Positions 5,397-39,695 of a DNA stretch of 64,000 bases are shown here, one piece after another (the first letter of the stretch is position 1; every line of letters begins with the position of its first letter). The notes under the pieces are model-generated. The model had not been told where the DNA came from. It worked only from the letters and a program-made list of their open reading frames with translations, and made no database searches. The DNA lies in NCBI RefSeq assembly GCF_028502605.1, contig NC_079236.1, forward strand, positions 434,001-498,000. Direction: 5' to 3'. The translations under genes were made by a program, and so were the position numbers. This DNA comes from Trichoderma breve. Its lineage: Eukaryota; Ascomycota; Sordariomycetes; Hypocreales; Hypocreaceae.

Positions 5397-5556
5397 AGCG
5401 ACTTTTTGTAGCTAGGTGTACGGAAAGTGAGGCAAGGCGGTGATCTCTCACAATTGGATGAAAAGTCTCTCTGTGGTGACTTTCCTCGTGTCTTGTTCAT
5501 TATACAAGTACAAGTAAATAGACGTATAATTGCTAAACTTCCATTTTATACAGCTT

Positions 5557-7459
5557 CTATGTAGTCAATCCCGTACATGCTAGTATACCAGCACCAACTA
5601 GAGAAAGATTTAGTTCAGGCACTAGAAGGGTTTCATCTTTCTGAGTACTTACGAATGCCCCCATCAACAACGGGTATAAATTCGATGATTTGTGAAGATG
5701 AATTGATGTCGTCTGTCAATCGATCAACCCAACTCTGCACTTCGTCCAAGTACTTTGGGAAATGCGAGATACCTACAGCACCACAGCATTAGCGATGTGT
5801 CTCTGGAAGAAGAGATGGCAGCTTACATCCGCCCGTATAGCCGACAAGCAATGGCTCCTCTTCTGCTAGGGCCTCAGCATCCGACGATTGGACTTGTTTC
5901 GATGGCGCTGTGCTATGGCTCGAAAGTAACTCAGGATCGAGCAACTTGTCGCATTTTAGAGCTCTGATGCAAAGCAGCATGGCAATGATGGCACTGCCTG
6001 TTAGCATTGTCGCACGCTTTCTCACTCTGATTGAGATTTCGCGCAAGACATTTGCACTTTCATAGTCCCATTTCCACTTGCTGCTTGATGTAGACGGTAA
6101 TTCCGTCTCGCACATCACAACAATCGGGTCTTTTTCATCACGACTACCAGATGTGGTGGTCTCGGCAAGGGTTCCAATAAATGCTGTTGCTAAAGAATTT
6201 CGCTGCCGAAGCCGCAATGGTAGGTCGACTTCAGAGATATGCCATTGGCTTGTGAAGAAGTCGACCGCCATTAGACGAGCCAGCTCGCCAAGATATCTCC
6301 CGGCAGCTAGAGAAACCTGTTAGCCATGTTTACTTCTCGATAGATGGAAATATGTACTCATGTAATCGTACGGCTGTTGGCCGGGTATAGGAAGGTCTTT
6401 GTCAAGTAGCAAATCCCACTTTGTTATATAAGATTGGAGTGGTCCCGATGCTCCCTTCATCTCCCATTCAGTGTTGATAATGAACTCGGTAGAATTTGAA
6501 GAAAGCTCTCCCAGATCCATATGACGAGGGAGTTTAAAGCTCCCAAAGCTGCTCAACGGCATGGTTACAGTAGCATTAGTGCCTGTTGCGCAGATGAAAC
6601 TCTGCATTCTGGTGTCAGCGACAAGAAACTGTAAGGGGAGGTGACTTACCATAGGCACTGGTTTACCGCACGTGCTTTGGGCGTTGTAATTTGCCGTAAT
6701 AAAGGTCGCTACCGCATCGTTGACAATGGCGGCAATCTTCAAATCTGGCAACTTGGTTTCCAGCTGATCACCAAGTTTGACTCTGTGAGTCTCATAGCCT
6801 TGGATTAGAAGATGCCCCAGATCCATATCAGTAGCAAGAGTGAACCCTTTGGACAGTGCCATTATTTTAGCTTCCTGTAATGACTCTTGACTGTATATAG
6901 GATTGGTGTTAGCACCGTAAACGTTGCATATCTGCAACAGCGTTGACTTGTCTTACATCATAGGGAAGGAAAACGTGATGCCGACTGGCAGAAATTCTTC
7001 GTCATAGCCTTCCGGGAAACTCTTTTTATTGCTCATCACATCAATAATGCAACTTCCAATCCAGTTGAAGATCTTTTGTGGATGTTCCTTTTTAAGATCT
7101 TCGTCGATATACCAAGACTTTTCGAAGGACTTATGAAGCCGACTCCTATTTGAAGCATCCTTGCCGCTCTCAGCCACGCCATCATGATCTCCCTCCTTAC
7201 TTGTGTCGAGAAATTCGATGATGCCTACTCGGAGATTTGTTCCTCCAATGTCGACGGCTAGGCACTTCCCTGTCTGATGTCCTGTCGACATGTTCTGCTT
7301 CAAAAGCGGTGTTGGAATGAACTGATCCGATGAAGTCATTGCTAGGCTACGAAAAGTAAGCCACAAATCTCTGGCTAGTGACCAAGGTTCCAAAGAATCG
7401 GGTGGCTCGACAGGGAATTGGTCTAAGAATGACTCTAGCGACGTGCTTTCGGATCCCAT
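5557..7459 (-). CDS. Hexokinase-family protein, possibly non-catalytic
   Basis: Six exons give 542 residues: 6957-7459, 6650-6890, 6358-6601, 5827-6306, 5653-5772 and 5557-5597. All five introns are GT-AG, 48-66 bases, with phases that join exactly. The start is the ATG at 7459 (MGSESTSLESF). Family motifs in order are VDIGGTNLRVG (phosphate 1), FSFP plus a restored Q across intron 1 (sugar loop), NDAVATF (usual NDTVGT; catalytic Asp kept), ATGTNATV (usual GTGTNA), NTEWEMKG (Glu kept, usually EWGAFG), TAGRYLGELARL, and GYTGGC near the C-terminus. The departures resemble the regulatory hexokinase-like proteins of fungi (the XprF/HxkC group in Aspergillus) more than standard hexokinase or glucokinase. 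Sugar phosphorylation is therefore uncertain; a carbon-sensing role is inference. Confidence 0.85.
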
Positions 7460-8935
7460 TTTGAAGTTGGTTTGCGCTCTTTGTTGGTAAGTTTTCGAAG
7501 TGGACGTGGGTAAGTGATGAAGTAAATCAGCTACTTTTAATAGCACAGTCACTTTTATGGCTGAATGTTATTGAAATATCCGAAAATTGTCCCCAGAGCT
7601 TGACAAGATATGTATCAAGTGGCTTAATAGTCGTCAAAGGTTTCACTGAGGTCGTCTTGGTGAGGAGGGGAAGCAGCTCAATTGGCGGCTGAATGCGCCT
7701 TAGACCCTCTAGCTATGACAAACTACTAACACAAGCTCTAATAAAGAGGCACTGCCTTAGCCGTCTTCGCATTCTTGGCAACGGGCGATAGCTCAACAAT
7801 TATTTTCTTGAACTAGATTGTGGAACATAAGTAAGAAATTAGTACTATGAAGAGTCAATAGTATCAAAGGCCCCATCTCACCCGCTATTCCCCGGCTGTA
7901 ACATTTCATCTGAACGCCTCTCCCGTCAGAGAGAACCTAGCCTAGAGATTGGAGCACAGCCAGCGGGCCACCCCAGGTAAAGGGCGCTGACAAAGTCCGC
8001 GATTCCCCGCTTACATAGTCTGCTGAACAATGGACTTGCTTAATGAGGTTGTCTGACTCGTGACCACTCCCAATAAGCTACGTGCATGAGCAGTCAAGAC
8101 AGACCATGTTGGCTTACCTTTCGGAATGAAATTTCGGAACGGAACAAGTTCCTCACTCTGCCAAGTAGATATCTCCATATGCCGACAAGAACCAGGGCGG
8201 TACTTGGTTTCTGGCTCCTAGCGGAGAAGCTGCCGACTTGAAATTAGAGTGGCCCGAGTATAAACACAAAACAGACTCGTGCCTGGCTTAAGCTGTTCCG
8301 TGGAGGTCGGAATAGACGAGTATCCGACATTCAAAGCGCCAGGTGGCTCGATAGTGTCAATGAGCGAAGATTCTAACTTTAGACTCTATGCTTAGAAGGT
8401 CGCCAAATTTTCAAGAAAAGGACATTGAATTGCCGAGCAAGGCTATTACCATGGGAGTGTGCATGATGCTAGATGCAGGGGAAGTCATTATTGCCACTAG
8501 CTTACATTCAGCTCGTATCATAGAGATTTGTATCGGACACGGGGTCGACCATTGTGGACTGCTAGTACCCTGCAGCTTCACAAATGCTCTATAATAGTGG
8601 CCGATAACTATGCAACAGAGGAGCTAAAGACGAAAACAGATGGATCTCATTCAGCTTATATACAGCTGAATTTTTAGGTATGAGCTATACAGACTTAATA
8701 TTCGACATTTAAAGATTTAAGATATCTTCTTTTCTTTCTACCTATATAGAGATTATACTTATTGTAGCTGCAACTAAGACTAATGATTAAGAACTAATAT
8801 AACTATAAATTTAGATGTATCGAAGAGAGGTATACGATGCTAATTTTTTCACTAATCATGGCGCCCTGACGTTCCAATAGTCAATCTCTTTCTCATGCCA
8901 CAGTGGGACCTGATAGTTATGGAATGCCTAACCAC
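7460..8935. other. Intergenic upstream of hexokinase-like gene
   Basis: This 1.5 kb stretch holds the promoter of the hexokinase-like gene at its left end and the 3' flank of the hemerythrin-like gene at its right end. The part around 8640-8830 is very AT-rich. I see no gene in it. Confidence 0.5.
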
Positions 8936-25466: not shown

Positions 25467-27390
25467 TCATATGAGGCCGATGCATACATAATAACCCAAC
25501 CAAAGCGAACTACAGGTACTACCAACACCAGGATTCCACTTCTCAAAGTTTGCCAGAGTAATTTTGGCGTTGGTGGCGATCGCTTGACACGAATCACCAG
25601 AAACCACTATTTGCTGGTCAGTATTCTCGAAGAATTAATAGAATCACAGCACGGCACTATTATGCGTGCAGGGTTATTGTCATAACTCACCTAAATGGAA
25701 CTTCTTACAGTTGGTCACCATACCAGCTTGCGTGGGTGTTGGTGTGGCTACACCATTGCCCGGGGTAGTCTTTGATGTCTTCATCGTCGTGGGAGTAGGG
25801 CCACCAACAATATTGACGCACACATAGTAACTAACCAACAGAGACGAGCAACCAGTTCCGACGGCAGGATTCCACTTATAAAAGTTATCAAGAGAGATAC
25901 CCTTTGCTGCAGCAACTGTTGCACATGAGTCTCCTGATTTCACCAGGTAGAAACTGTTGCAATTGCTGACCATGCCGGTCTGTGTAGGAGTTGGAGTCGT
26001 GATTCCATTTCCAGGTTTCGTTGTTGTAGAAGTGGGCTTGACTGTCGTCCCTCCCACAATACCTACACAGACATAGTCTCCCACGATGAGCGCAGTGCAG
26101 TCCGACTTCACAGCAGGATTCCATGCGTAAAAATTGGCAAGCGTTATGGCATTGCTCGAGGCCAGAGCAGGGCAACTATCACCAGAAACAACCAAATGGA
26201 ATTTATTACAACTGCCAATCATTCCAGTTTGAATTGGGCCAGGTGTAGAGATTCCGTTACCGGGCTTAGTAGACGTCGATGTAGGTTTGACTGTTGTTCC
26301 GCCTACAATGCCGACACAGACATAGTCTCCCACGATTAGCGATGTGCAATCGTTTTTTACTGCGGGATTCCATGCGTAAAAGTTGGCAAGAGTTATGGCA
26401 TTGCTCGTGGCAAGATCCGGGCAGGTATCGCCAGAAACAACTAGATGGAACTTGTTACAGCTGCCAATCATGCCAGTTTGAATCGGACCTGGAGTGGAGA
26501 TTCCATTGCCAGGCTTTGAAGAAGTCGACGTGGGCTTGACTGTTGTACCGCCGATGATTCCAACACAGACGTAATCACCGGCAAGAAGTTGAGTACAATC
26601 GCTCTTGACTGCGGGATTCCACGCGTAAAAGTTGTCCAAGCTGATACCGGCCTTTGAAGCAATGTCAGGGCAGGTATCGCCGGACACCACAAGATGGAAT
26701 GAGTTGCAGTTGCTAACAATCCCCGTCTGTACTGGGCCAGGAGTCGAAACCCCATTGCCTGGCTTAGTGGTAGTTGAACCACCCTGCGAGATGACACCAA
26801 CGCAGACATAGTAGTCAAGGATTAGAGATGCGCATGAGGTTCCCACTGCAGGGTTCCAAGAGTAAAAGGTATCCAGGCTGATGCCGTTGGCCGACGCCAA
26901 AACAGCACAAGAGTCTCCTGAGACTACTTTGTGGAACTTGTTACAGTTGCTGACCATGCCAGTCTGTGTAGGTGTTGGCGTGGTAACTCCATTGCCTGTT
27001 GTAGTAGTCGAAGCCGCCTTTGAGGTGGAAGAAGGCGGTGGTGGCACTCCAAAATTCTGCTCAACGCAATATGAGTCTCCCGCTATAATGGGACATCCGC
27101 TTTTAGCTAGAGATGGATTCTGTGAGATGGATTAGCTTTGTGTTATGGATAAACACTGAACGAGCGGAGTCGGCAATTGCTTGAAGGCTTTGACATACGT
27201 ATGCATAGAGTTGATCAAGTGTGATGAACCCAAAATCAGCTATGCTCTGGCAAGTATCTGAACTTGAAACAACATCCCAAGATGTACAGTCCTGTATGGT
27301 ATCACTTGGAGCTGTTGTAGGAGGATCAACGGTGTAGGCTGCGGCAAGAAGACCAGCTGCGCATAGCACAACAGCAAGTGACTGTCTCAT
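25467..27390 (-). CDS. Secreted protein with seven LysM domains
   Basis: Three exons, 27199-27390, 25691-27119 and 25467-25606, give 586 residues. Introns are 27120-27198 and 25607-25690; both joins fall inside LysM domains and restore them (YAY-NPSLAKSGC; KFHL-VVSGDSC). A signal peptide (MRQSLAVVLCAAGLLAAAYT) is followed by a first, divergent LysM, then six very similar units of the form C-N-x-F-H-x-V-V-S-G-D-x-C to WNPAV and YYVCVG. Units are joined by Thr/Pro/Gly linkers (KPGNGxxTPxPxQTGM). LysM modules bind N-acetylglucosamine polymers. Fungal multi-LysM secreted proteins (TAL6-type in Trichoderma, Ecp6-type in plant pathogens) bind chitin, shield hyphae or affect spore germination. Units 4 and 5 differ at only a few residues, so they are recent duplicates. 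It is divergently paired with the next LysM gene. Confidence 0.93.
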
Positions 27391-28097
27391 GTTTGCCTTG
27401 CTGCCTTGGCTTCGACGAAGAGGCTAGTTGAGAGAATGCCTTGCCATCAAAAAAGGAGACAGCTGCATCACTCGATATATCTCGTTTATTTATACCATCA
27501 TCTCCATCGTTATCGAAAGTTGCAGCTGCAAAAATTGCATCGTGACCAATGTCTCACCGAATCCCCTGTAGACATCGTATGTCATAGAAAACTCCGCGGA
27601 ATTAACAGGATCACGATCCTGAAGCTCAATACTTCCATGACGAGATGATTGTCAACGTTCCATCCTCCGGTTGAATGCATGTGTACGGCACAGTAAGGTG
27701 ATGTTGAATCCTTCACTGTGATGCAGGGGTTGTGCATGCCATGCATGCAATCCTCCCCCAACACCATTCCCGCTTGTGGGGTCAGATCACACAATGATGC
27801 GCCCACAGATTCCCTTTGTTGGTAAGACGAGCGAATCCTCATCGCCAAGCCGGAAGGAATATCGGTTGTTCAAGGCGGACCGTCGCTGACAACACGGACA
27901 TTTGTCGATTTTAGGCAATTGAGATCTTGCTGCACCAGATGAGGCCGATTCCAAGGCATTTGGATAAGGCATTTGGATAAGGCATTTGGACGTTGCCTGT
28001 TTTCTGTGTCTGTCTGGAAAATACCATTTCTGTAAAGCAAAGCTAAGCAAAGCTGTTGAACAGAACACCAGACAGAGTATCTCCATCAGTCTAGATC
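27391..28097. promoter_or_regulatory. Shared bidirectional promoter of two LysM genes
   Basis: 707 bases separate the divergent ATGs of the 7-LysM and 5-LysM genes, so their control elements must lie here. It contains a three-copy 13-base tandem repeat at 27954-27992 and a short AGCAAAGCT repeat near 28036-28055. No confident TATA box was chosen. Confidence 0.6.
27954..27992 (+). repeat. 13-base tandem repeat, nearly three copies
   Basis: AGGCATTTGGATA occurs at 27954-27966 and 27967-27979, then as AGGCATTTGGACG at 27980-27992. It lies 106-144 bases upstream of the 5-LysM ATG. On the other strand each unit contains CCAAATGCC, so it could be a clustered transcription-factor site. Confidence 0.85.
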
Positions 28098-30428
28098 ATG
28101 GGCTTCGCTGTAGGGCTTGCCTTGCTTTTGCAGGTCGTGGCTTTTTTCTGCAATACTCCTTTTGCTGAAGCCCAAGTTCAACTCCTCAATATCACAAATG
28201 CACCTGGTCTCTCTGCTACATGTATTGCTGTTCTGAACCAGGCGGTGAACTGCACAACTACAATTGCTTCCATCGGCAATGTTCTCGATGGCTCTCCAGT
28301 CTTTGGCACACCACTGTTTTTGACAAGCTCTCAGCTTAGCGGACTGTGCAACACTGCATGCTCAGCATCATTGACAACATGGGAAAGGCGAATAGCTGGT
28401 GCTTGCGGAGCGACACTTTATGATGCAGCAGACGGTGGCCAATACGCTCTGGCATTGTTTGCTGAGCAATATGTCGAAGCCTACAGTTCAGTCTGTCTGA
28501 TGAACAAGTAAGTAAATACTTATCGTCAGCACGAGGAGCACAGAAGCAGAACTTACGGTAAATATCAGAGCAGGGGCTTATTGTAATCGTGTGATTGGAG
28601 ATCTCATGCGCATTGATCCGGCCAACCAAAGGGCCACGGCGACGCCCGGTAAGTAACAAATTTTTCGAATATGAAGATTTTGTATTGACATTTGTTAGTT
28701 TCTACTGCATATTGTGATGATTGCTACCTCTCTTTGTTGTCTACCCAGTTAGCAATGCCGTTGGCCTCTACCGCTGACCTGAAGAGCTTATTTGTAACTT
28801 TGACATCCTCGTGTAAAAAGACAGGATGGAGTTTATCTGCTCCTCCAACAGCAACAACATTTACAGTTCCGTATGTATCCTCGGTAATATGAATCTTTGT
28901 AAATTCAAACTTATAAGTGCGACTAACATGGCAATACCAATAGGCCAACCCAGCCTCCGGCAGCTGTGTGCTCTGGTACTAAATACACAATCTCCTCAAC
29001 AGACACATGCGTGGGTATTTCCATGAACAAGGGAATAAGTACCGATGATTTACTCTCATACAATTACCTATCGTCTTTGTGCAAATACTTCCCCAAAGCG
29101 GGCACCTCTCTCTGCATTCCCGACTCTCGTGTCTGCAAGCCATATACGGTGCTGAAAGACGATACATGTTCTTCTCTGCAGAGTCAATTCAAGATTTCAT
29201 ATGCGCAACTTATCGCGTGGAATCCATCTCTGGGGTCGAAATGCTCCAATATTCAGCAATACGTCGGCTATGCGATTTGCGTATCAAATCCGGGAGGAAA
29301 CTATGTTAATCCCAGCCCAACTACCATAATTCCGTCTTCGACAGCGTGAGTGAAATCCCCCCTTTCACCAAAGACTATAAGAATATTAATACAAGACTCA
29401 AGGACTTCGTTATGGACATACTCTTTGCCAGCCATGACATCATACCCCAATGCTACATATGTAGCGTCCACCGCAGACGCTCCCTATGCAAACGGAACCC
29501 GCATGGACTGCACAAACTACTTCACTGCGCCAATCCTTACCAATTATACTGGAAATGGGACCACAAGCTTCAACTGCCAAGATGCTGTTTCTCAGTTTGA
29601 CATTGAAATGACAGATTTCTTGACCTGGAATCCATCTCTGAATGCTTCGAGCCCGTGTACAATGGCAAATAACACACAGTATTGCGTCCAAACGTACAGA
29701 CAAACGTCTAAAAATATTACCAGTTCTTGTGTGCAGAAGGCAATCGCTCCTCCGGGCTACGATTGCATCGGCTTCACATCAAGGCACGGCATAGACCAAG
29801 ACCAATTCGCACTTTGGAATCCAGAAGTGGGGAGTGACTGCGGGCAGTTCAAAATTGGCACTCAATATTGCATTGATGTGCTGCACTACCGACAGCCAGG
29901 TATCACTTCGAACTGCAATAAGTTTGCTGCGGCCAATAACACCAACTGTAAGTCACATAGCACCGCTGATTGTTTTCTACGATTTTCAAGCCACCGTACT
30001 AACTTGCGACAGGGGTTGAGCTTCCATGTCAGATAATTGAGACAGAATTTGGCATAAGCCACGCCCGCTTCATCGCATGGAACCCTGCTGTCCAAGACAA
30101 CTGTAAGTATTGGCCTTCTGTCAATTATCTTTGGGCATGAATATTTCAAAATTCTCACACTTCTGTGTCTTTTTTAGGTACTGGGCTATATCTTGGCTAC
30201 GATTATTGCGTTTCGATACCCAACTACAGGCCCACCTACACGTCAACCACGCCATTTGCTACCGCGCTGCCAAGCCCAGCAGTTTTGCCTGGCGTAAAAT
30301 CCAATGCGAAAAGTTCATCAAGTTCGTTGCCCAAGGGGAAAGCGACCGTAACTTCAGGTAGTTCCAAGTCTACTAAGTCGAATAGTCTGGATCGGCAAAT
30401 GACTGTTCCTACTCCCACTGGGAAATGA
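28098..30428 (+). CDS. Secreted protein with about five LysM domains
   Basis: Seven exons give 649 residues: 28098-28507, 28569-28648, 28699-28870, 28944-29345, 29403-29947, 30013-30102 and 30178-30428. All six introns (50-75 bases) are GT-AG with exactly matching phase. A signal peptide (MGFAVGLALLLQVVAFFC to AEAQ) is followed by a Cys-containing N-terminal region of about 230 residues without LysM (with CDDCY), then LysM-like units marked by TISSTDTCVGISMNKGIS, YTVLKDDTCSSLQSQFKIS, a divergent unit with FLTWNPSLNASS, FALWNPEVGSDC and FIAWNPAVQDNC. The tail is Ser/Lys/Thr-rich. The layout matches fungal LysM proteins that sit next to subgroup C chitinases. Predicted role: extracellular chitin binding. 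The third unit is the least certain. Confidence 0.9.
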
Positions 30429-30571
30429 CAGCAAGGCTACGGGGCGTCCAAATATTTGGATATCACATTAGGCTATTGAAATAGCATTTCAGATACAACT
30501 AGATAAATCTTATTTTAGAATCCATATCTAGAGATGATTTATAAATTGTGCTATGTTGTCAGAGAAGGCTC

Positions 30572-30866
30572 TCAAGTTTGTGAAAGGCCACGTTCATGAC
30601 CATCAATAACTTCTCCCACTGCCTGGTGACCATCCCTGTTGGCAATATATGTACCTAGCTGTCTGGCCCACTCCATCCCGGGAGTCCACTGTCGCTCCTG
30701 TCTCCAGCAGATATTTCACAGCCACTGCATTTCCTGAAAGCTGCAGCGTGCAGTGCCGTAAGGCGTCGGGATATAGGGGCCAGATGAATGCATAGAGCTG
30801 TTCGGAGTGGAATATTGGATCTCCATGACAAGGATTTTCTTCAGATGGAATTGTCAAGGGACCCAA
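30572..30866 (-). pseudogene. Relic of an ankyrin-repeat gene
   Basis: On the minus strand DALRHC then GNAVAVKYLLETGATVDSRD is a clear ankyrin unit. It continues as GVGQTA and then, after a frame change near 30660, as NRDGHQAVGEVIDGHERGL and a stop at 30572. Only about two repeats remain, with no intact start. The frameshift and isolation mark it as a remnant, perhaps of a larger ankyrin gene displaced by the LysM/chitinase block. Confidence 0.6.
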
Positions 30867-31046
30867 ATCCAGAATGTCATGTCAGCATAAGACGAGAATT
30901 TCACGGCACTTCGGAAATAGGCAGCAACGAATCCCAGCCCTAGTGATCTAGACTGGTTGCAAAATGCTCTCTTAAGATAAATTGAATAGCTTCCGAGTAA
31001 AGATATCTTTAATAGAGTACATCGAAAGGCGCTGATCCAACACACC
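30867..31046. other. Short spacer 3' of secreted-protein gene
   Basis: 180 bases that hold the 3' flank of the 360-residue secreted-protein gene. The minus-strand frame across it is a shadow. Confidence 0.4.
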
Positions 31047-32264
31047 CTAGCCAAACCAATCCATGTTGACTTCATAATCGAGATTGGCTTGACAATTGGC
31101 CCTGCTTTCCAAAGAAAGACGGACAAAATCAATATGGCCAGGATCACCTTTCTGCAGAGGAGTGGAATCGGCTGAAAGATCATCCCAGCTAATGTTCCAT
31201 TGCTCAGTATTATCTATCGCATTAACTGCCACCAGTTGCGTTGGCCTTCCAGCAGAAGCGCCTGAGTATCTTGCCTTTAACTCTGAAAACTCAGCGGCCC
31301 AAATATATTGGTACTTTGACAGTTGTCTTGGCTTGAGAGACATGACATCTAGAAGCTGCAAGTTAGCCCAGATTGGAGCACATGAAGAAACGGCTGAGTC
31401 AATGTGGATTGACTATATTCAACTTACAGACTACGCCGCCGCAGTGTCTAGCCATTGCGCGGGACATGTGTTCAAAGTAGGTGAAATACACTTGATTTGT
31501 TTGCAAAAAGGCGAGCCAGCTGCCGTCGACGAAGACTTCCCAGTAGTTACGATCCTTGGGGTTGTCGGGGTTTGGGTTGCTGATATCGTTCTTGCCCGAA
31601 TACAAATTCTGCGAGTAGGTGAGTATACACACAAGTAATTCTAGGCTATTCAATGATTATTTACCCATATAGACAACAATTTCTTTTTGCAAGCCCAATC
31701 CGTAGCGAACCATGAAAGGCCAGGGTGGTCGAGATGGCCCATTGTCTGTCGAAGGGCCCATTCTGCCTTGTCCTCGTTTTCCTTAGGGACAGAAGTGTAA
31801 AATACGCATCGGTTCATCAGCTGAGAGTCTGGTAAGAGTATCTGTTTTTCAAGCCATTCCGTCGTCAAGTCATTTATACTGGTGACTTTGCCTGCAGCCG
31901 CTTCTATGCATCCCAAACAACTGGGCAATTTGAACACTGGATCTCCAGGCTGACTACCAGGCGTGCGTTTGACGATACTTCTTTTGTCAAGGTTTGGTAA
32001 TGGTTGAATCCCCAGGGCCGCTTGTAGTTGTTTATTATTCCAGGAAAAATTAACTTGGTAGTTTTCATAAAAGATATGTTCAGGCAGGACATCATCGGAT
32101 AACTTCTTCTCGGTGCCTTCATGGCCACGAGCATTCACGGCCAGTGCTTTATTCGTAATTCTTTTTGGGGTTGGGAGTGTACGAGGAGCGACATTTTTTC
32201 CAAAGGCCAAAGAGAGAATCAAGGTGATGGCAAAGAATACTGGAAGTACTGCCAATCGACCCAT
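31047..32264 (-). CDS. Secreted protein of unknown function, 360 residues
   Basis: Three exons: 31665-32264, 31428-31608 and 31047-31348. Introns are 31609-31664 and 31349-31427; the second acceptor was chosen because it yields CGGVVYVMSLKPRQL in phase. The start at 32264 gives a clean signal peptide (MGRLAVLPVFFAITLILSLAFG); an upstream frame has no better start. Basic KRT/KR sites follow (LDKRSIVKRTPG), possible Kex2-type processing. The body has a CLGC pair, CVFYTSVPKENEDKAEWAL, a YWEVFVDG segment and FEHMSRAMARHCGGVVYVMS. I recall similar uncharacterised fungal secreted proteins with a FYTxG start and an MSxAMAxxxxGTVYVM centre but know no function. Its place between LysM genes and the chitinase suggests the same extracellular task. 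Confidence 0.8.
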
Positions 32265-33177
32265 ATTGAGAGAAGCAGGTCTTGCAGCAATGGCCGCTTC
32301 AAGATGCCTAATGAAATTGAAGACAAGACAAAAGGATATTGTCGAACCTTCTGCCATGAAAAGAAGGGAATGCATGAGTATCCTAAATTCACAACTGCCT
32401 TGCCCAAATCTACGAAGCATATCGGCTACAGTATCGGAGTTCCTCCAGTGATGGCGTGGGGTCGAAAATCCAATGGATCGAAGGAATCTATGCTTGTCGC
32501 ATTGGATCGAAAGACCTCGGTCGGATGTTACTCAAAGTAGACCAACTGGACAGTGCGGTATATACTGTAGAAAGAAGGTGGTTGGCCCTAATTTTTTCCC
32601 TTGCAGATTCCTCGATGCATGCAACCTTGTAGGTGGTGCTACTGATCTGCTGATTGGTGTAATCAGCTCTCATTGGCAGCAGATCAGATCCGAATAGCCG
32701 ACACCCTTGTAGCTGAATGTGGTTCGCAGGATCAACAGGTTAATATAAGCTGTAAGATGAGGTTTGTTAGAGTTAAACATAAGCGCAACCGACCTCCGGC
32801 GATCCGGCGGCAACGTAATATGCCTCAGCTTGTAGCTTTGTAAATCGTTGACAGAGCCAGAGCGTGACAATATCGAAGGATTGCAGTGTTGCATTGTAGG
32901 AACTCCGATTTATGGCCGTGAATGCTTGTTGGTGGGACTTTTGAGGCTGGCCTAAGGATTTACCCGGCTGGAGATAGCAGTATGCTGTTGATCATTCCCG
33001 TAGGATGCGCAACTCCGATATGCATCCGTACAGCAGGCCGAGGTTCTGCTGTGGAATTTTGGGTGTTGCTGTTAAAACTTTCCATAGCTCTGTCATGAAA
33101 CTAGACTGGGCGTTTCCTGCCGTTATAGAAATCTCACGTAGGACGTGAATCTCTAGCTGTGCGGACCTCAATCAACA
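32265..33177. other. Intergenic: divergent promoters of unknown secreted protein and chitinase
   Basis: 913 bases between two divergently transcribed secreted-protein genes. The short frames here look like chance frames. No TATA box or repeat was found that I would stand behind. Confidence 0.5.
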
Positions 33178-36100
33178 ATGAGGACCATGGCGATGCGAGG
33201 ATATCAGTTTCTTTCAAATCTTCAAATTATTACTTTTGTCTTCTGTTTCGTTATCATTTGCTTCAGCGGTGTTTCAGCACAGCATATTCATGCCCCAACC
33301 GTCTGGAATGAATCCCTAAGTACTAGTAAGCCGCGGGACTTCTCCTTGTTCCGGAGACAGACACGTACATGTTCCAAGACACAAAAGTGTTCAGATGGTT
33401 CATGCTGTAATGGACAAACGCAAGTATACAGAGGCCATATTGTTGTGGAATAAGAATGCTGACAATTGAACACCAACAGAGGCGTTGTATGTGTGACTCT
33501 ATCATGATACCACCTTCAGAAGGAACTTGTTGGGTCAATTCCCAATGGGTGGTCGCTTACTTACAAATATTTGCTTCTATAGTGCGGTCTTGATAAAGAG
33601 CATTGCGATCCCAGTGTCTGCATCTCAAATTGCGATGCCAAAGCTGAATGTGGTTCCTGGGGCGAGACCCCGGGAGAGCTGTGTCCTCTGAATGTTTGCT
33701 GCGGAGAATTTGGATACTGTGGCACAACAGCAGTAAGTTTGCCAGACCAATCCGGATCAAAGATTCGTTTGGTTCTAATGATCGGTTGCTAACGTCTGGT
33801 TCACCAGGACTTTTGCGGAAGTGGATGCCAATCCAATTGTAAACAGCCTCCTGCCAATAGCTTAAATAACGGTGATGTAACAAATCTGGTCATTGGGTAA
33901 ATAAGTTACAGTTGCGCTTTATATGCAACGGCGTATGCTGATGATGATGAACCTAGCTATTACGAAGCCTGGGCTCCGTATAGACGTGGCGCCTGTGAGT
34001 ACTATTTCCGGTTTCTATCTTCATCGGGGCATCATGAGACTTACAATGACGTGAACCAAATTACAAGGCCCAAATCGTCCTCCATCATGGATACGTACAG
34101 ACTCAATTACACACTTATATGTTGCTTTTGCATACATTGCACCTAAAACATACGAGATATATCCTATGAACGAAACCAGCGAAGAGATATTTCTTGAAAT
34201 TATGCAATTAAAGCAGACGGCCCCGGGATTAAAGATCTTTTTGTCCCTAGGTGGCTGGACGTACTCGGATAATGAAACGTATGACCCTATTTTCTACCTC
34301 AGTTGATATCTCACACGCCTGACGAACTGAAACGCTCAACACCTACAGCGACACCCAACCTGTCTGGGGCGAGCTTGCCAGCACGGCTGCAAACCGACAA
34401 AAGTTCATCGGAAATCTAGCCAATTTCATGAGTAAGTTCGGAACCGATCACAGAATTAGCTACCTAGTCTCCTAATACGCCATGCTTTTGCGCAGCAAAC
34501 TATGGGTTTGATGGTGTGGACATAGATTGGGAATATCCCGGAGCTTCTGATCGAGGGTAAGTTTCTCCAATGATCTCCTAAACACGACCTCAAAATCACT
34601 GACTCAATCTTTTATAGAGGAAAGAAGGCAGATACTGCAAATTACGTTCTTCTTCTACAAGATATCAGAACATTTTGGACCGCACAAACCAATGGCGTAA
34701 GTCTCTTACTGCGTGTTTCACTGTTTCATACGAATCACAAATCTTCTCATCATTTCTTCAACGATGGAAACTGATTTCTCGTCTTTTCATATTATGGTAG
34801 TGGGGTCTTTCATTCACGGCACCAACATCGTACTGGTATATGCGCTGGTTCGATATTGGAAATCTCACGCAGTATGCTGATTGGGTCAATCTGATGACAT
34901 ACGATCTCCATGGTAGTTGGGATTCTCCTGAAGACCAGATTGGTTCATATGTCTATGCACATACCAATCTCACCGAGATTTCCGACGCGCTTGACTTACT
35001 ATGGAGAAACAATGTGCCAGCCAACAAAGTAAACCTTGGTCTAGGTTTCTACGGCCGTTCATATACTCTGTCTGATCCATCATGCACCTTGCCCGGTTGC
35101 GAATTCTCAGACACAGGTGTGGCAGGGTCATGTACGGGCACCGGTGGGATTCTCTCTTATGAAGAGATCACTGCCATAGCCGATACATATAGCATCAAAC
35201 CGGTTGAAGACAAGAAGGCGGCTGCTATGTATTTTGCGTTTGACGAGGACCAATGGGTCTCGTACGACAATGTGGCCACGATCAAGGAAAAGGTAGACTA
35301 TGCCAATAAGAACGGTCTTCTCGGACTGTTTATATGGGCTCTGGATCTGGACAACGACAATTACGACGCTCTTGCAGCCGTTCTTGATGCAAAAGGCGGT
35401 CTTGGTGCATTCAAAGCTCAGAACGGCGTTGGACCTGCTGGCTCAACAGACTGGCAGCCAACTCAAGCATCCTGCTTCATGAGCGAATGCAGCACCTCAT
35501 CTGCTTGTCCAGGAACACACCGGAGCGTCGGACATTCCGTATCATGCGATGGCAAAGATCAATTCAGATGGGTCTGCTGCCCGCGCGATCGCGCACCTGA
35601 TGCCAGCACATGCGAGTGGAAGTCTTCTATTACTTCGTTTCTCGGCCTAAGCTTGGTCGACTGCAATAACGGTTGTCTTACGGATGAAGTGCTTATTGCT
35701 GAAAGCAAGTGGTACTATGACGATGATTCTCAATCCAGCAAGAAGTGTCTCAGCGGATATGCGCAATATTGTTGTGCCACATCTGAAGATGCCCGTAGCC
35801 TCTGTGGCATGTTGGACGGGTCGTGCATTTCCATAAAAGACGGCAAGCCTGATGGGGATGATCCTTGTGCCGCTAGCGGCCGTGTTTATGCGACATACTC
35901 GCAGGATACATGTCCCGATGGCTCATGGCGTCCATGGTGCTGTAATGAACAGGTTGATGTATCGCAATGCGCGTGGCAAGGCCCGAAGCAAGACATAGCC
36001 AGTGACGCTTGTATCAGAGCCATGTCTTGTCCAGCGAACCTGGTTAACATGGGCCACTCTAAGAACGGCGGTGGCTACGACTGTACGGAATTCAGTATAG

Positions 36101-38252
36101 CAACGGATCACAGTATATCATTGCCAATCGGAACACATGAGAGAGCGCTTTGCTGTGCGGCAGGAGATGTTGTGGTCTATAATCAGACGGCTCCAGTGCC
36201 TCTGGCGTGGCTGTTCATCGAAGACGTTCCAGATTCAGACAAACAGAAATACGAGATGAATGTCGAGACTGAAGCTACTGGAAACCAAGATCCTAACGAA
36301 AATGGCTTTGGTTGGGTTATCATGACTGGTCCTGAGGATCAGCTTGCTTCGTTGGATAAGCGAGATGGCTCTCATTGGGAGCTTTTTGACTGCCCTGATC
36401 GGGGGACTATCGCTGAGGATGACAGAATCACTGTTCGTGCCGTTTGTTCAGATGATTCCAGCGATAGTAACTGCGACATTATTTTCCGAGGCGGTGTCGA
36501 GCGTACCGTAGTCGAAATGCCTCCAGCATGTGGTATTGGTCGCTATGCGATGGCTGTCAGCATGGAATCAGCTGAAGACCAAACCGTGCCGAAGCATGTC
36601 TATCACAAACTCGTCAAACGTGGTGCCAACTTGAGAGCACGTCCACACGTATACAGCTTCACGTTCGACTATGATTTCTCAGTCTTACACGGAAGAGCCG
36701 ATAACACTGTCCAAATTCGCATTGACTACTCTGAAGATCCGGGATACTGGGCGGCCATTGTGGACAATGATCCTAAAAACACCAACCCAGTGAGGAAACG
36801 AGAAGTAGCAAGGGAAGTTGATCGCCGTCATGGCGGGTCTTGGAAGAGATACGCTGAACATCAGTTTCATACTGAAAGATTAGCTACACCGAAACACAAA
36901 AGGGATGAATTTGAAAAGCGGTGGTGGACTCTAGACCCAGCAATTTGGCTAGAGGTTATGGATAAGCTGAACGAAAAGGGATTCGAAGGAGAGATACCAC
37001 TCGCATCGCATCATCTTCAGGACACATTTCCTTTCTGGCTCTTTAACGAAAGACTACAATGTTCGCTGCTCGGCATCCCTTACGATGCTTACTTTACTGT
37101 TTGGGCGGATCTACATGTCGACATTCTCACATCGGCTCAACTAACACTAATTGTACGTTGCAGCATGATCAAAGAGCACCTGAACCGTGAAACTAACCAA
37201 CCATCTTCAGGGCCACCTTAACGATCTCACCAGCTGGAACCAATCGCACGTTTTGTTCCGTAACAAGGGCTCTATACAAGCAGGTTTGCATATGGAAGCC
37301 CAGGCAACCGTGCGCTTCTCAACTGGATCAGTTGAGCTGTTTGGTATGCAAAACTTCGGAGGCACGTTCACTGTGCCCGGTATAGTGACGATCGGACCAA
37401 ACTTTAGAGTGCTTGGAGTATGATATCTTCCCCTACTCGATTCCTCTCATGAAGAAATGAAAACGCTAACCTTGAGTAGCAACTGACCGGAGTCTTTACC
37501 GCACATACGTGAGTCAGCTTGTGAACATCCCAAGACAAGATTAGTGGCTGACCATTAACAATGATACAGCCAAGCTCATTACAACATGGACGTACTGTCC
37601 TGGGATTATTCACAGCGCTATCCTAATCCTGACAATGACGTTTTATCTGGACTTACTGACAACACAGAAAATCCCAAAGACCCCGGGATAGATGATGATC
37701 CCGACAAGCCGAGCAATTTCACCGCAGATGTTACCGTAAATGGTGACATTACCCTACAAATGTAAGTCATACACAATTGAGCGGCCAATAGGGTTATCAG
37801 AACTAATTACTCGCCAGAACTCCGTTGGTGGAATTTGGAGTCCGCTTCAATCCCAAGTACAAAGCTACCGACACAACAATCTCGCTACAGCTCAATACCC
37901 ATGCGACACTTTACGGAAGCGCTGGTGTTGGCACAGATACTGCAGCGAGTGTTTGTTATGGTGCTCTCGCTGGTGCTGAGCTGTTTGCTCAAGTCCAAGC
38001 TCCGTAAGTGCTCATTAGAAATTGAATGCCCATGCAGGCCTTGAACTGATAAATCCATGTAATAGATCCATTCTCGGGGTCAATCCCAATAGGCGATGGA
38101 GTTTCTATAAGCAAGATGTAAGTTCATGGAACAGGACACTTTACAAGGGACCACGATTTTCTGACAAATTATCTTTGAAGGTCGACATCCTCGAACAGAA
38201 ATGCTATGGGCTTAAAGATTTCTTCCCCTCTGATTGCCCAGACTGTGATTGA
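33178..38252 (+). CDS. Subgroup C (killer-toxin-like) GH18 chitinase with chitin-binding modules
   Basis: About 1,350 residues in about 16 exons: 33178-33423, a tiny exon near 33480-33490, 33583-33732, 33808-33896, 33957-33994, 34068-34278, 34349-34431, 34496-34556, 34618-34696, 34801-37152, 37211-37417, 37480-37508, 37570-37761, 37818-38003, 38066-38117 and 38181-38252. From 33583 onward all joins are GT-AG and in phase. A hydrophobic signal (QIITFVFCFVIICFSGVSA) is followed by hevein-type CBM18 sequence (CSDGSCCN, CGLDKEHC, then AECGSWGETPG, CPLNVCCGEFGYCGTT). The GH18 barrel has FLSLGGW and the catalytic DGVDIDWEYPG near residue 280. A long Cys-rich tail follows. No LysM was seen in this protein. 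It should cleave chitin outside the cell. The exon near 33480 is uncertain (see findings). Confidence 0.88.
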
Positions 38253-38479: not shown

Positions 38480-39695
38480 TCATGAGAACGCAGGGTCAGG
38501 TCCCTTGGCAAGTCCAATATAAGTTTCCATCTGCATTCGCCACCACTCGACATTCTCCCGATTGCCCATGAAAGTGATGTATCCGCTGGGCTGAGTATTG
38601 TTTGCCATGAACACATTGTTTGTGCCAGTCAGAGAAGTTCGGATAGATGGGCCTCCCGACGCTGAAAGAGTTGACTGCCATTCAGTGCTCAACAAGAAAG
38701 ACAAAAACAGCTTTGAACTCTCCGGGCGAGGTGTCGAGGCAAAGATAGCCGCCTGTTGAGCCCAGGTCATGAACTGGTCTGGTGCATCAGGTTGACGGAC
38801 TTGAAGGAAAGAAGTAGATGGTGTAAACCCGCCCAGCGCAGAAAAGGTCAAAACTCTCGAACCCTTGCCAGACGAATGGTTATCGATGATGGCACCGGTG
38901 GCAGCTGCTGCACCACGCACCCACATGACATCTTGCTTTAGAAGCGAGTCCAACCACTTGAAGCCATACCGCTCAATGATAAGAGAAAACAGATACAGAA
39001 CACCATCATCGTCGTTGGGATAAGTAAGAACAAGTTTGCTTTTCCAGTAAGGGTCTAGAATATCGGCATATGCCTTGGGCACCTTATTTGCGGGTACAAT
39101 TGTAGAATCGTAGTAGAATGGACCAAATTGATCTGGAGAAAACATTAGCATCAATCACCGGTTTCGAACGGTGATAATGGGAAGGACACGCACTGTAGTT
39201 GACAGGTAGATATGCTCCGTCAATATGCTTGATAGCCAGGTTGATGTCACTGAAATTGGGCGGCTTATAATGCAAAAGACGTTGCTGCTTATCCCATCGA
39301 GGGAAGTCGTGTACCGTTTGCAATAATGCCACGTCGATGAATGGCTTCCCTTCTATGTAGCTCCGATCAATGCGTGAGTCGGCATATTTCGACAAATCCG
39401 CGGTAATATTAATGGCGACATCGGGAAATTTTTTGCGGAATGCAGTTAGCATCGGAGAAGCAGCCGCTTGTGCTATGGCTAGTTAGTAACTATTCTCAAC
39501 TTTAGAGAAGAAATGCAATGCAATCTTACAGCTGCCGCCAAAATACACGTTCAAGGTGCCGTGTTCATGCTTTGCATTTTGGTAAATTTCATCCAAAGAT
39601 CTCGTCTCGATTTCTGTGCCATATGCAAGAACCTGGCTCGCGGAAAAAAGGCAAGCACCCAGGAGGGCAGACTGAATCTGCTTGAAGGACGGCAT
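38480..39695 (-). CDS. Secreted periplasmic-binding-protein-like protein (ABC solute-binding fold)
   Basis: Three exons, 39530-39695, 39194-39478 and 38480-39132, give 367 residues. Introns 39479-39529 and 39133-39193 join in phase, giving FGGS-SIAQAAASP and PVNY-NQFGPFYYD. A signal peptide (MPSFKQIQSALLGACLFSAS to VLA) precedes LNVYFGG, RKKFPDVAINITADLSKYAD and the second-lobe pattern KVPKAYADILDPYWKSKLVL, all typical of the iron(III)/small-anion type II periplasmic-binding family. Bacterial members feed ABC importers; fungi lack that periplasmic set-up, so the ligand and use here are unknown. It might scavenge thiamine-like or metal ligands outside the cell. It converges on the chitinase gene. 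Confidence 0.82.

What the first reader, a model, noticed from the sequence alone, without database searches (positions are those of the whole stretch)
25467..38252. Compact chitin-directed module: two divergent LysM genes, an unknown secreted protein and a killer-toxin-type chitinase
Seen: four adjacent secreted-protein genes, two with multiple LysM modules (seven and about five) sharing one promoter region, one unknown, and a chitinase of about 1,350 residues with CBM18-type modules. Known: subgroup C chitinases resemble the Kluyveromyces killer-toxin chitin-binding/chitinase subunit and are often adjacent to LysM genes in mycoparasites. Inference: the group forms one attack or defence unit in which LysM proteins bind or protect chitin while the chitinase opens foreign walls, possibly to admit the unknown protein.
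Basis: partly seen in the sequence, partly recalled or inferred. Interest (0 to 1): 0.8.

Follow-up and report, generated by a model that had tools for sequence, protein, structure and literature searches.

The report
CD38-like secreted protein beside killer chitinase
Next to a killer-toxin-type chitinase and two chitin-binding LysM genes, a Trichoderma-like fungus carries a secreted protein whose predicted shape matches CD38-type enzymes that bacteria use as NAD-destroying toxins, which suggests, but does not yet prove, a toxin carried with its own wall-opening partner.

The parts
25467..27390 (-). LysM-A: secreted protein with seven LysM modules (Tal6-like), exons 27390-27199, 27119-25691, 25606-25467, 586 aa
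   Evidence: splice model; Pfam LysM E 4.4e-42, six passing stretches
27391..28097 (.). 707-bp intergenic region between the two divergent LysM genes
28098..30428 (+). LysM-B: secreted protein of about 640-670 aa, N-terminal cysteine-containing region without LysM, then about five LysM-like modules (two pass in Pfam)
   Evidence: splice models; Pfam
31047..32264 (-). The 'unknown': 360 aa, exons 32264-31665, 31608-31428, 31348-31047; signal peptide, pro-region with Lys-Arg at 94-95 and 99-100, mature CD38-like (ADP-ribosyl cyclase fold) domain, C-terminal DWFG
   Evidence: model; family; fold of homologues; single copy
32265..33177 (.). 913-bp intergenic region shared by the CD38-like gene (-) and the chitinase (+)
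33178..38252 (+). Killer-toxin-type chitinase, 15 exons, 1,348 aa: N-terminal hydrophobic segment, two CBM18 stretches, GH18 (residues 160-503), 845-residue C-terminal region with eight dibasic sites
   Evidence: model; Pfam; dibasic count

Best explanation
The unknown gene encodes a secreted pro-protein. Kex2-type cleavage at the Lys-Arg pair at residues 99-100 frees a mature domain with the ADP-ribosyl cyclase (CD38) fold. Most likely this domain consumes NAD(P)+ and is an antifungal toxin. It is made together with the divergently transcribed chitinase, which binds and opens foreign chitin so that the toxin can reach the plasma membrane, while the two LysM proteins coat chitin, probably the producer's own. 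The conserved pro-region would keep the enzyme silent inside the producer. Shown: genes, dibasic sites, fold by prediction on two homologues, single copy, divergent arrangement. Inferred: secretion and processing, NAD(P)ase activity, silencing by the pro-region, joint expression, wall passage, membrane entry and target.
Against: By motif order, the second catalytic Glu and the two Trp of the bacterial toxins fall on W200 (or N201), Y156/F155 and F245 here, so activity may be altered or lost; residue-level superposition was not available. No hydrophobic segment like that of zymocin beta was seen in the chitinase C-terminal region (best 19-residue mean 1.18). The three Lys-Arg/Arg-Arg pairs of the protein are not more than its composition gives (P 0.22). 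No immunity gene was recognised. No word of 9 or 10 bases recurs in four or more of eight intergenic regions. A shared fold does not show function.
Confidence: 0.5

Rival explanations
1. The protein is an ADP-ribosyl cyclase-fold ectoenzyme that acts outside cells: it removes or converts extracellular NAD+ (a danger signal for plants; recalled) or makes cyclic ADP-ribose, and is not delivered into other cells.
For: Same fold evidence; CD38 is a cell-surface enzyme; Tac1 with its second Glu replaced releases cyclic ADP-ribose (PMC12356396, passage), and that position looks substituted here.
Against: A pro-form with a conserved pro-region and Kex2-type sites suits a protein that is dangerous to its maker; the gene diverges from a killer-type chitinase; neighbours at other such loci are other kinds of secreted protein.
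Confidence: 0.2
2. The protein keeps the ARC fold but has no catalytic activity; it is a binding protein or effector, and its place next to the chitinase reflects shared regulation by chitin or prey only.
For: Three of four catalytic positions look substituted by motif order; one family member, P0024, also lacks the Glu and much of the pro-region.
Against: The candidate essential Glu is kept in 9 of the 10 rows that reach it; the mature part differs much less from P0001 than the first 100 residues. Most Tac1 variants with other active-site residues changed still inhibited growth (PMC12356396, passage).
Confidence: 0.15
3. Ordinary chitin-handling cluster: Tal6-type LysM proteins and a subgroup C chitinase, with an unrelated secreted gene by chance.
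For: LysM genes lie next to chitinases in most cases in Trichoderma (PMC3218866, passage). Controls for the neighbour pattern are few: a fixed signal-peptide script found 4 of 8 killer-type loci and 0 of 4 other GH18 loci, which is not significant by itself, and the script is insensitive (it missed two neighbours that I count by eye).
Against: Fold and pro-form of the neighbour; single copy; five of the eight killer-type loci have a non-LysM, apparently secreted gene diverging from the chitinase and a sixth has one in tandem before it.
Confidence: 0.15

Closest known systems
Tac1 (Streptococcus parasanguinis, PDB 9ouf) and ARCtox (Pantoea ananatis, PDB 9ro8), ADP-ribosyl cyclase toxins
   Same: Predicted fold of the mature domain; best structural matches; candidate essential Glu
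   Different: Secreted eukaryotic pro-protein with Kex2-type sites, no recognised immunity gene, longer, other catalytic positions look substituted; activity unknown. Neither paper contains a word beginning with 'fung' in its main text
Tox-ARC domains in fungi (Zhang et al. 2012, PMC3482391, passages)
   Same: That paper already lists ADP-ribosyl cyclase domains in ascomycetes and basidiomycetes and suggests that toxin domains acquired by fungi may serve in conflict like yeast killer toxins
   Different: The passages seen name no fungal gene of this kind; 'chitinase' does not occur in the held text; whether its fungal members include this family was not tested
Zymocin and related yeast killer toxins; D. 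hansenii elements with GH18, chitin-binding and NucA/NucB parts (PMC8472843, passages)
   Same: Chitin-binding GH18 carrier, Kex2 sites, separate or fused toxic part; the C6 chitinase of this genome has a DRDEYPP motif in its C-terminal part (by eye; no Pfam support)
   Different: Chromosomal, no linear plasmid, cargo candidate of CD38 fold and not a tRNase, no membrane segment seen
Tal6/tac6 of T. atroviride (PMC4392113, passages) and lysm2/chiC1 of Clonostachys rosea (PMC7176902, passages)
   Same: Seven-LysM protein next to a subgroup C chitinase; in C. rosea lysm2 and chiC1 are adjacent and co-induced on chitin
   Different: The passages seen mention no CD38-like neighbour; orthology of the loci was not tested

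Membership tests
ADP-ribosyl cyclase (CD38/Tac1/ARCtox) fold family | ARC core fold | tested here: met
ADP-ribosyl cyclase (CD38/Tac1/ARCtox) fold family | Essential Glu (CD38 E226, Tac1 E573, ARCtox E356) | tested here: inconclusive
   E280 fits by motif order and spacing (35 residues after F245; 33 from W323 to E356 in ARCtox, PMC12605009), kept in 9 of 10 rows; no residue-level superposition seen
ADP-ribosyl cyclase (CD38/Tac1/ARCtox) fold family | Second Glu and two Trp of the active site | tested here: inconclusive
   By motif order W200/N201, Y156/F155 and F245 stand there, so they look substituted; alignment across insertions is uncertain
ADP-ribosyl cyclase (CD38/Tac1/ARCtox) fold family | NAD(P)+ cyclase or hydrolase activity | not testable with these tools
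   needs protein
ADP-ribosyl cyclase (CD38/Tac1/ARCtox) fold family | Match to the Pfam model of the metazoan family (PF02267) | tested here: inconclusive
   PF02267 is not among the families matched by any of 22 members; the own-genome search with PF02267 was silent, and so were its controls
Zymocin-type killer toxin | Chitin-binding GH18 carrier subunit | tested here: met
Zymocin-type killer toxin | Kex2 sites in carrier and cargo | tested here: inconclusive
   motifs only: 8 in the chitinase C-terminal region, P 0.009; 3 in the CD38-like protein, P 0.22, though the arginines at 95 and 100 are invariant in A1
Zymocin-type killer toxin | Hydrophobic membrane segment of the beta part | tested here: not met
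   best C-terminal 19-residue hydropathy mean 1.18
Zymocin-type killer toxin | tRNase cargo | tested here: not met
   cargo candidate has the CD38 fold
Zymocin-type killer toxin | Linear cytoplasmic plasmid with immunity gene | tested here: not met
   lies in a 4.2-Mb contig of a 38.5-Mb assembly; no immunity gene recognised
Fungal subgroup C chitinase | GH18 with DxxDxDxE and CBM18, large protein with C-terminal extension | tested here: met
Fungal subgroup C chitinase | LysM modules inside the chitinase | tested here: not met
   no LysM in the 1,348-aa model; PMC8042737 (passages) says LysM does not define the C clade and C-I members often lack it, so this is not a defining feature today
LysM effector of Tal6 type | Secreted, several LysM, no catalytic domain, next to a subgroup C chitinase | tested here: met
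   secretion by N-terminal sequence only

The most novel reading that the evidence does not exclude
The eight killer-type chitinase loci of this genome form a chromosomal, polymorphic killer-toxin system of a filamentous fungus: a common chitin-binding chitinase carrier, often with LysM proteins for self-protection, combined with exchangeable secreted cargos (a CD38-like NAD-consuming enzyme here; a caspase-like protein, two HExxH-bearing proteins, a Lys-Arg-rich protein with a GLHGCT...AHYWE motif and an unnamed single-exon protein elsewhere; a possible NucA/NucB-like nuclease fused to one chitinase).
Probability: 0.35. Interest if true: 0.9.

Novelty: new variant of a known kind. Interest (0 to 1): 0.72.

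Why it matters
Killer-toxin-like chitinases are widespread in filamentous fungi, but what, if anything, they carry is an open question as far as the passages I saw tell. A candidate cargo with a testable chemistry (NAD(P)+ loss, cyclic ADP-ribose) makes the 'chitinase opens, toxin enters' idea directly testable in a group that includes biocontrol fungi, and would tie fungal antagonism to the same NAD-depletion strategy as bacterial toxins.

Tried and rejected
Paralogues of the CD38-like protein: none found with a single-protein search of the genome (next match E 0.57) or with a profile of A3 against stop-to-stop ORFs of six other loci (no hit at E up to 10). PDB by sequence profile: 0 matches at E up to 10. 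Pfam and NCBIfam: nothing relevant. Shared promoter words in eight intergenic regions (two of the window, one each of six other loci; C6 left out): 8-mers slightly above shuffles (6 in four or more regions against mean 1.44, maximum 6; 2 in five or more against mean 0.05, maximum 1), none of 9 or 10 bases in four or more; shuffles were of dinucleotide blocks only. NucA/NucB-like C-terminal part of the C6 chitinase: motif by eye, no support in Pfam (only SpoIVA_C, E 0.054). Caspase-like neighbour: PF00656 E 0.0037, below Pfam's cut-off. The two HExxH neighbours: no Pfam family, and only weak BLASTP pieces between them, E 0.016 and 0.95, so they may or may not be distant relatives. Controls for the neighbour pattern: 14 upstream regions were asked for (one, C4, later counted as killer-type), none given; 4 control loci of 3.5 kb were obtained; 8 more asked for were not given. 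That the 4 controls are not killer-type rests on no CBM18 match there. L056, the other side of the C4 locus, was fetched and not examined. A first automatic chitinase splice model failed and was replaced by a manual one. Earlier guesses at the second intron of the unknown gene were replaced by the one that agrees with P0001; the homologue search and the alignment used the earlier guess, which differs in three residues.
Full report
What is there. The window lies in a 38.5-Mb assembly in nine contigs. The unknown protein's closest relative, 94% identical, is named T. harzianum (P0001), so the source is probably a Trichoderma close to that species; this is inference. LysM-A and LysM-B diverge across 707 bp, the unknown and the chitinase across 913 bp.

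The known part. LysM-A has seven LysM cores, like Tal6 of T. atroviride, whose gene lies next to the subgroup C chitinase gene tac6 (PMC4392113, passages). LysM genes next to chitinases are described for Trichoderma (PMC3218866, passage) and, with co-induction on chitin, for Clonostachys rosea (PMC7176902, passages). The chitinase has GH18 with the catalytic motif, two CBM18 stretches and no LysM. Its 845-residue C-terminal part holds eight dibasic sites where shuffled composition gives 3.1 (P 0.009), but no clear membrane segment.

The unknown protein. It has a hydrophobic N-terminus, a pro-region, Lys-Arg at 94-95 and 99-100, and a mature part ending in DWFG. Three protein searches found 26 relatives, P0001-P0026 (17, 5 more, 4 more). 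The 11 of 26 with an organism in their name are Trichoderma (harzianum, gracile, chlorosporum), Annulohypoxylon (two), Apiospora (three), Xylaria, Pestalotiopsis and Rostrohypoxylon; no T. reesei, T. virens or T. atroviride is named, which hints at a patchy spread but does not show absence. Some relatives are fragments or carry unspliced tails. In the first alignment of 18 sequences H63, F65, Y66, Y69 and W75 of the pro-region, the arginines at 95 and 100 and four cysteines (C116, C119, C153, C192) are invariant; in the alignment of 22 that includes degenerate and partial sequences, most of these, not all, stay nearly invariant. Against P0001, 13 of the first 100 residues differ and 5 of the other 260. 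No Pfam or NCBIfam family fits, and no second copy was found in the genome.

Catalysis. In Tac1 only replacement of the Glu equivalent to CD38 E226 abolished activity completely, and the second Glu steers the product towards ADP-ribose (PMC12356396, passages). ARCtox needs W273, E299, W323 and E356 (PMC12605009, passages). By motif order and spacing, E280 of the unknown fits the essential Glu and is kept in 9 of the 10 rows of alignment A4 that have a residue there; the other 10 of its 20 rows stop earlier or have a gap, and the exception, P0024, looks degenerate. The other three positions look like W200 or N201, Y156 or F155, and F245. If so, activity may be lower, or cyclic ADP-ribose may be released; this needs residue-level superposition and an assay.

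The wider pattern. GH18 and CBM18 searches and the reading of flanks (part of the output was cut and re-read) gave eight killer-type loci. Six have a CBM18 match near their GH18 (the window's below the cut-off, above it in the spliced protein); the C3 subtelomeric and C3:260k loci were taken in by their architecture. Two CBM18 matches without a GH18 partner (C5:245309, C3:113585) were left out. Their neighbours: window, CD38-like, divergent; C3:258k, caspase-like with a signal peptide by eye (YGGHG and DACFAGG; PF00656 E 0.0037), divergent; C3:6074k, secreted with HELSH, divergent; C3:18k, Lys-Arg-rich protein with GLHGCT...AHYWE, divergent, first exon and secretion uncertain; C4:3400k, secreted single-exon protein without a known family by eye, divergent; C8:601k, secreted with HELIH between a LysM gene and the chitinase, same strand; C3:3496k, LysM only; C6:2068k, no secreted neighbour seen, but a DRDEYPP motif in the chitinase C-terminal part. 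So six of eight have an apparently secreted non-LysM neighbour, five of them divergent, of about five kinds (the two HExxH proteins may be distant relatives). Four of these neighbours were searched and each was found once in the genome, at its chitinase; the C3:6074k protein was not searched. A fixed signal-peptide script finds 4 of 8 killer-type and 0 of 4 control GH18 loci; with so few controls the excess is suggestive, not proven.

Reading. Zhang et al. (PMC3482391, passages) list Tox-ARC in fungi and liken yeast killer toxins to polymorphic toxins. D. hansenii elements join GH18, chitin-binding and NucA/NucB parts, with predicted Kex sites (PMC8472843, passages). In Podospora a 1,350-residue gene with Hce2, chitin-binding and GH18 parts is up-regulated about threefold in incompatibility (PMC3689799, passages). 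The window's module fits between these: a chromosomal carrier with a separate CD38-like candidate cargo. Searches for 'ADP-ribosyl cyclase' with 'Trichoderma' (5 papers, none on this by title and start of abstract) and with 'killer toxin' (3 papers, 2 listed) showed no report of it; (171 papers with three of four terms) the term 'ADP-ribosyl cyclase' does not occur in the 15 listed. The library lacks most subscription papers, including the original papers on subgroup C chitinases of T. atroviride, so this does not show absence in print.

Limits. No expression data, no DNA of other fungi, no assay. Delivery, target and immunity are inference. The zymocin membership test fails on three features, so 'works like' is claimed, not 'is'.

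Noticed in passing
L052 (C3:3499000-3508999), local 5497-6267, minus strand: Secreted precursor with six near-identical repeats separated by Lys-Arg sites (TECSAVT..DGTVTKR..NIPWTKNYGEYDEKR), like a Kex2-processed repeat peptide, about 2 kb downstream of a killer-type chitinase.
   Followed up: no
L047 (C6:2058000-2067999), ORF at local 6727-7923, minus: C-terminal part of a LysM/CBM18/GH18 chitinase with a DRDEYPP motif reminiscent of NucA/NucB nucleases; Pfam does not support it.
   Followed up: partly
L053 (C3:251000-260999), local 6807-7871, minus: Caspase-like protein with signal peptide by eye (His/Cys dyad motifs, PF00656 E 0.0037) diverging from a killer-type chitinase.
   Followed up: partly
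C3:17863-18824 (L046), plus: Lys-Arg-rich protein with GLHGCTMLAVIS..AVYMAHYWE, Cys and His spaced as in CNF/CheD-type deamidases (recalled pattern, untested), diverging from a subtelomeric killer-type chitinase.
   Followed up: partly
window 38480-39154, minus: Open frame matching bacterial extracellular solute-binding proteins (SBP_bac_6, E 1.1e-6) just after the chitinase; not examined further.
   Followed up: no
window 30603-30881, minus: Short open frame resembling a piece of an ankyrin repeat (by eye) between LysM-B and the CD38-like gene, perhaps a gene remnant.
   Followed up: no
P0024 (Rostrohypoxylon terebratum): Family member without most of the pro-region and with Ala in place of the candidate essential Glu; looks degenerate.
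   Followed up: no
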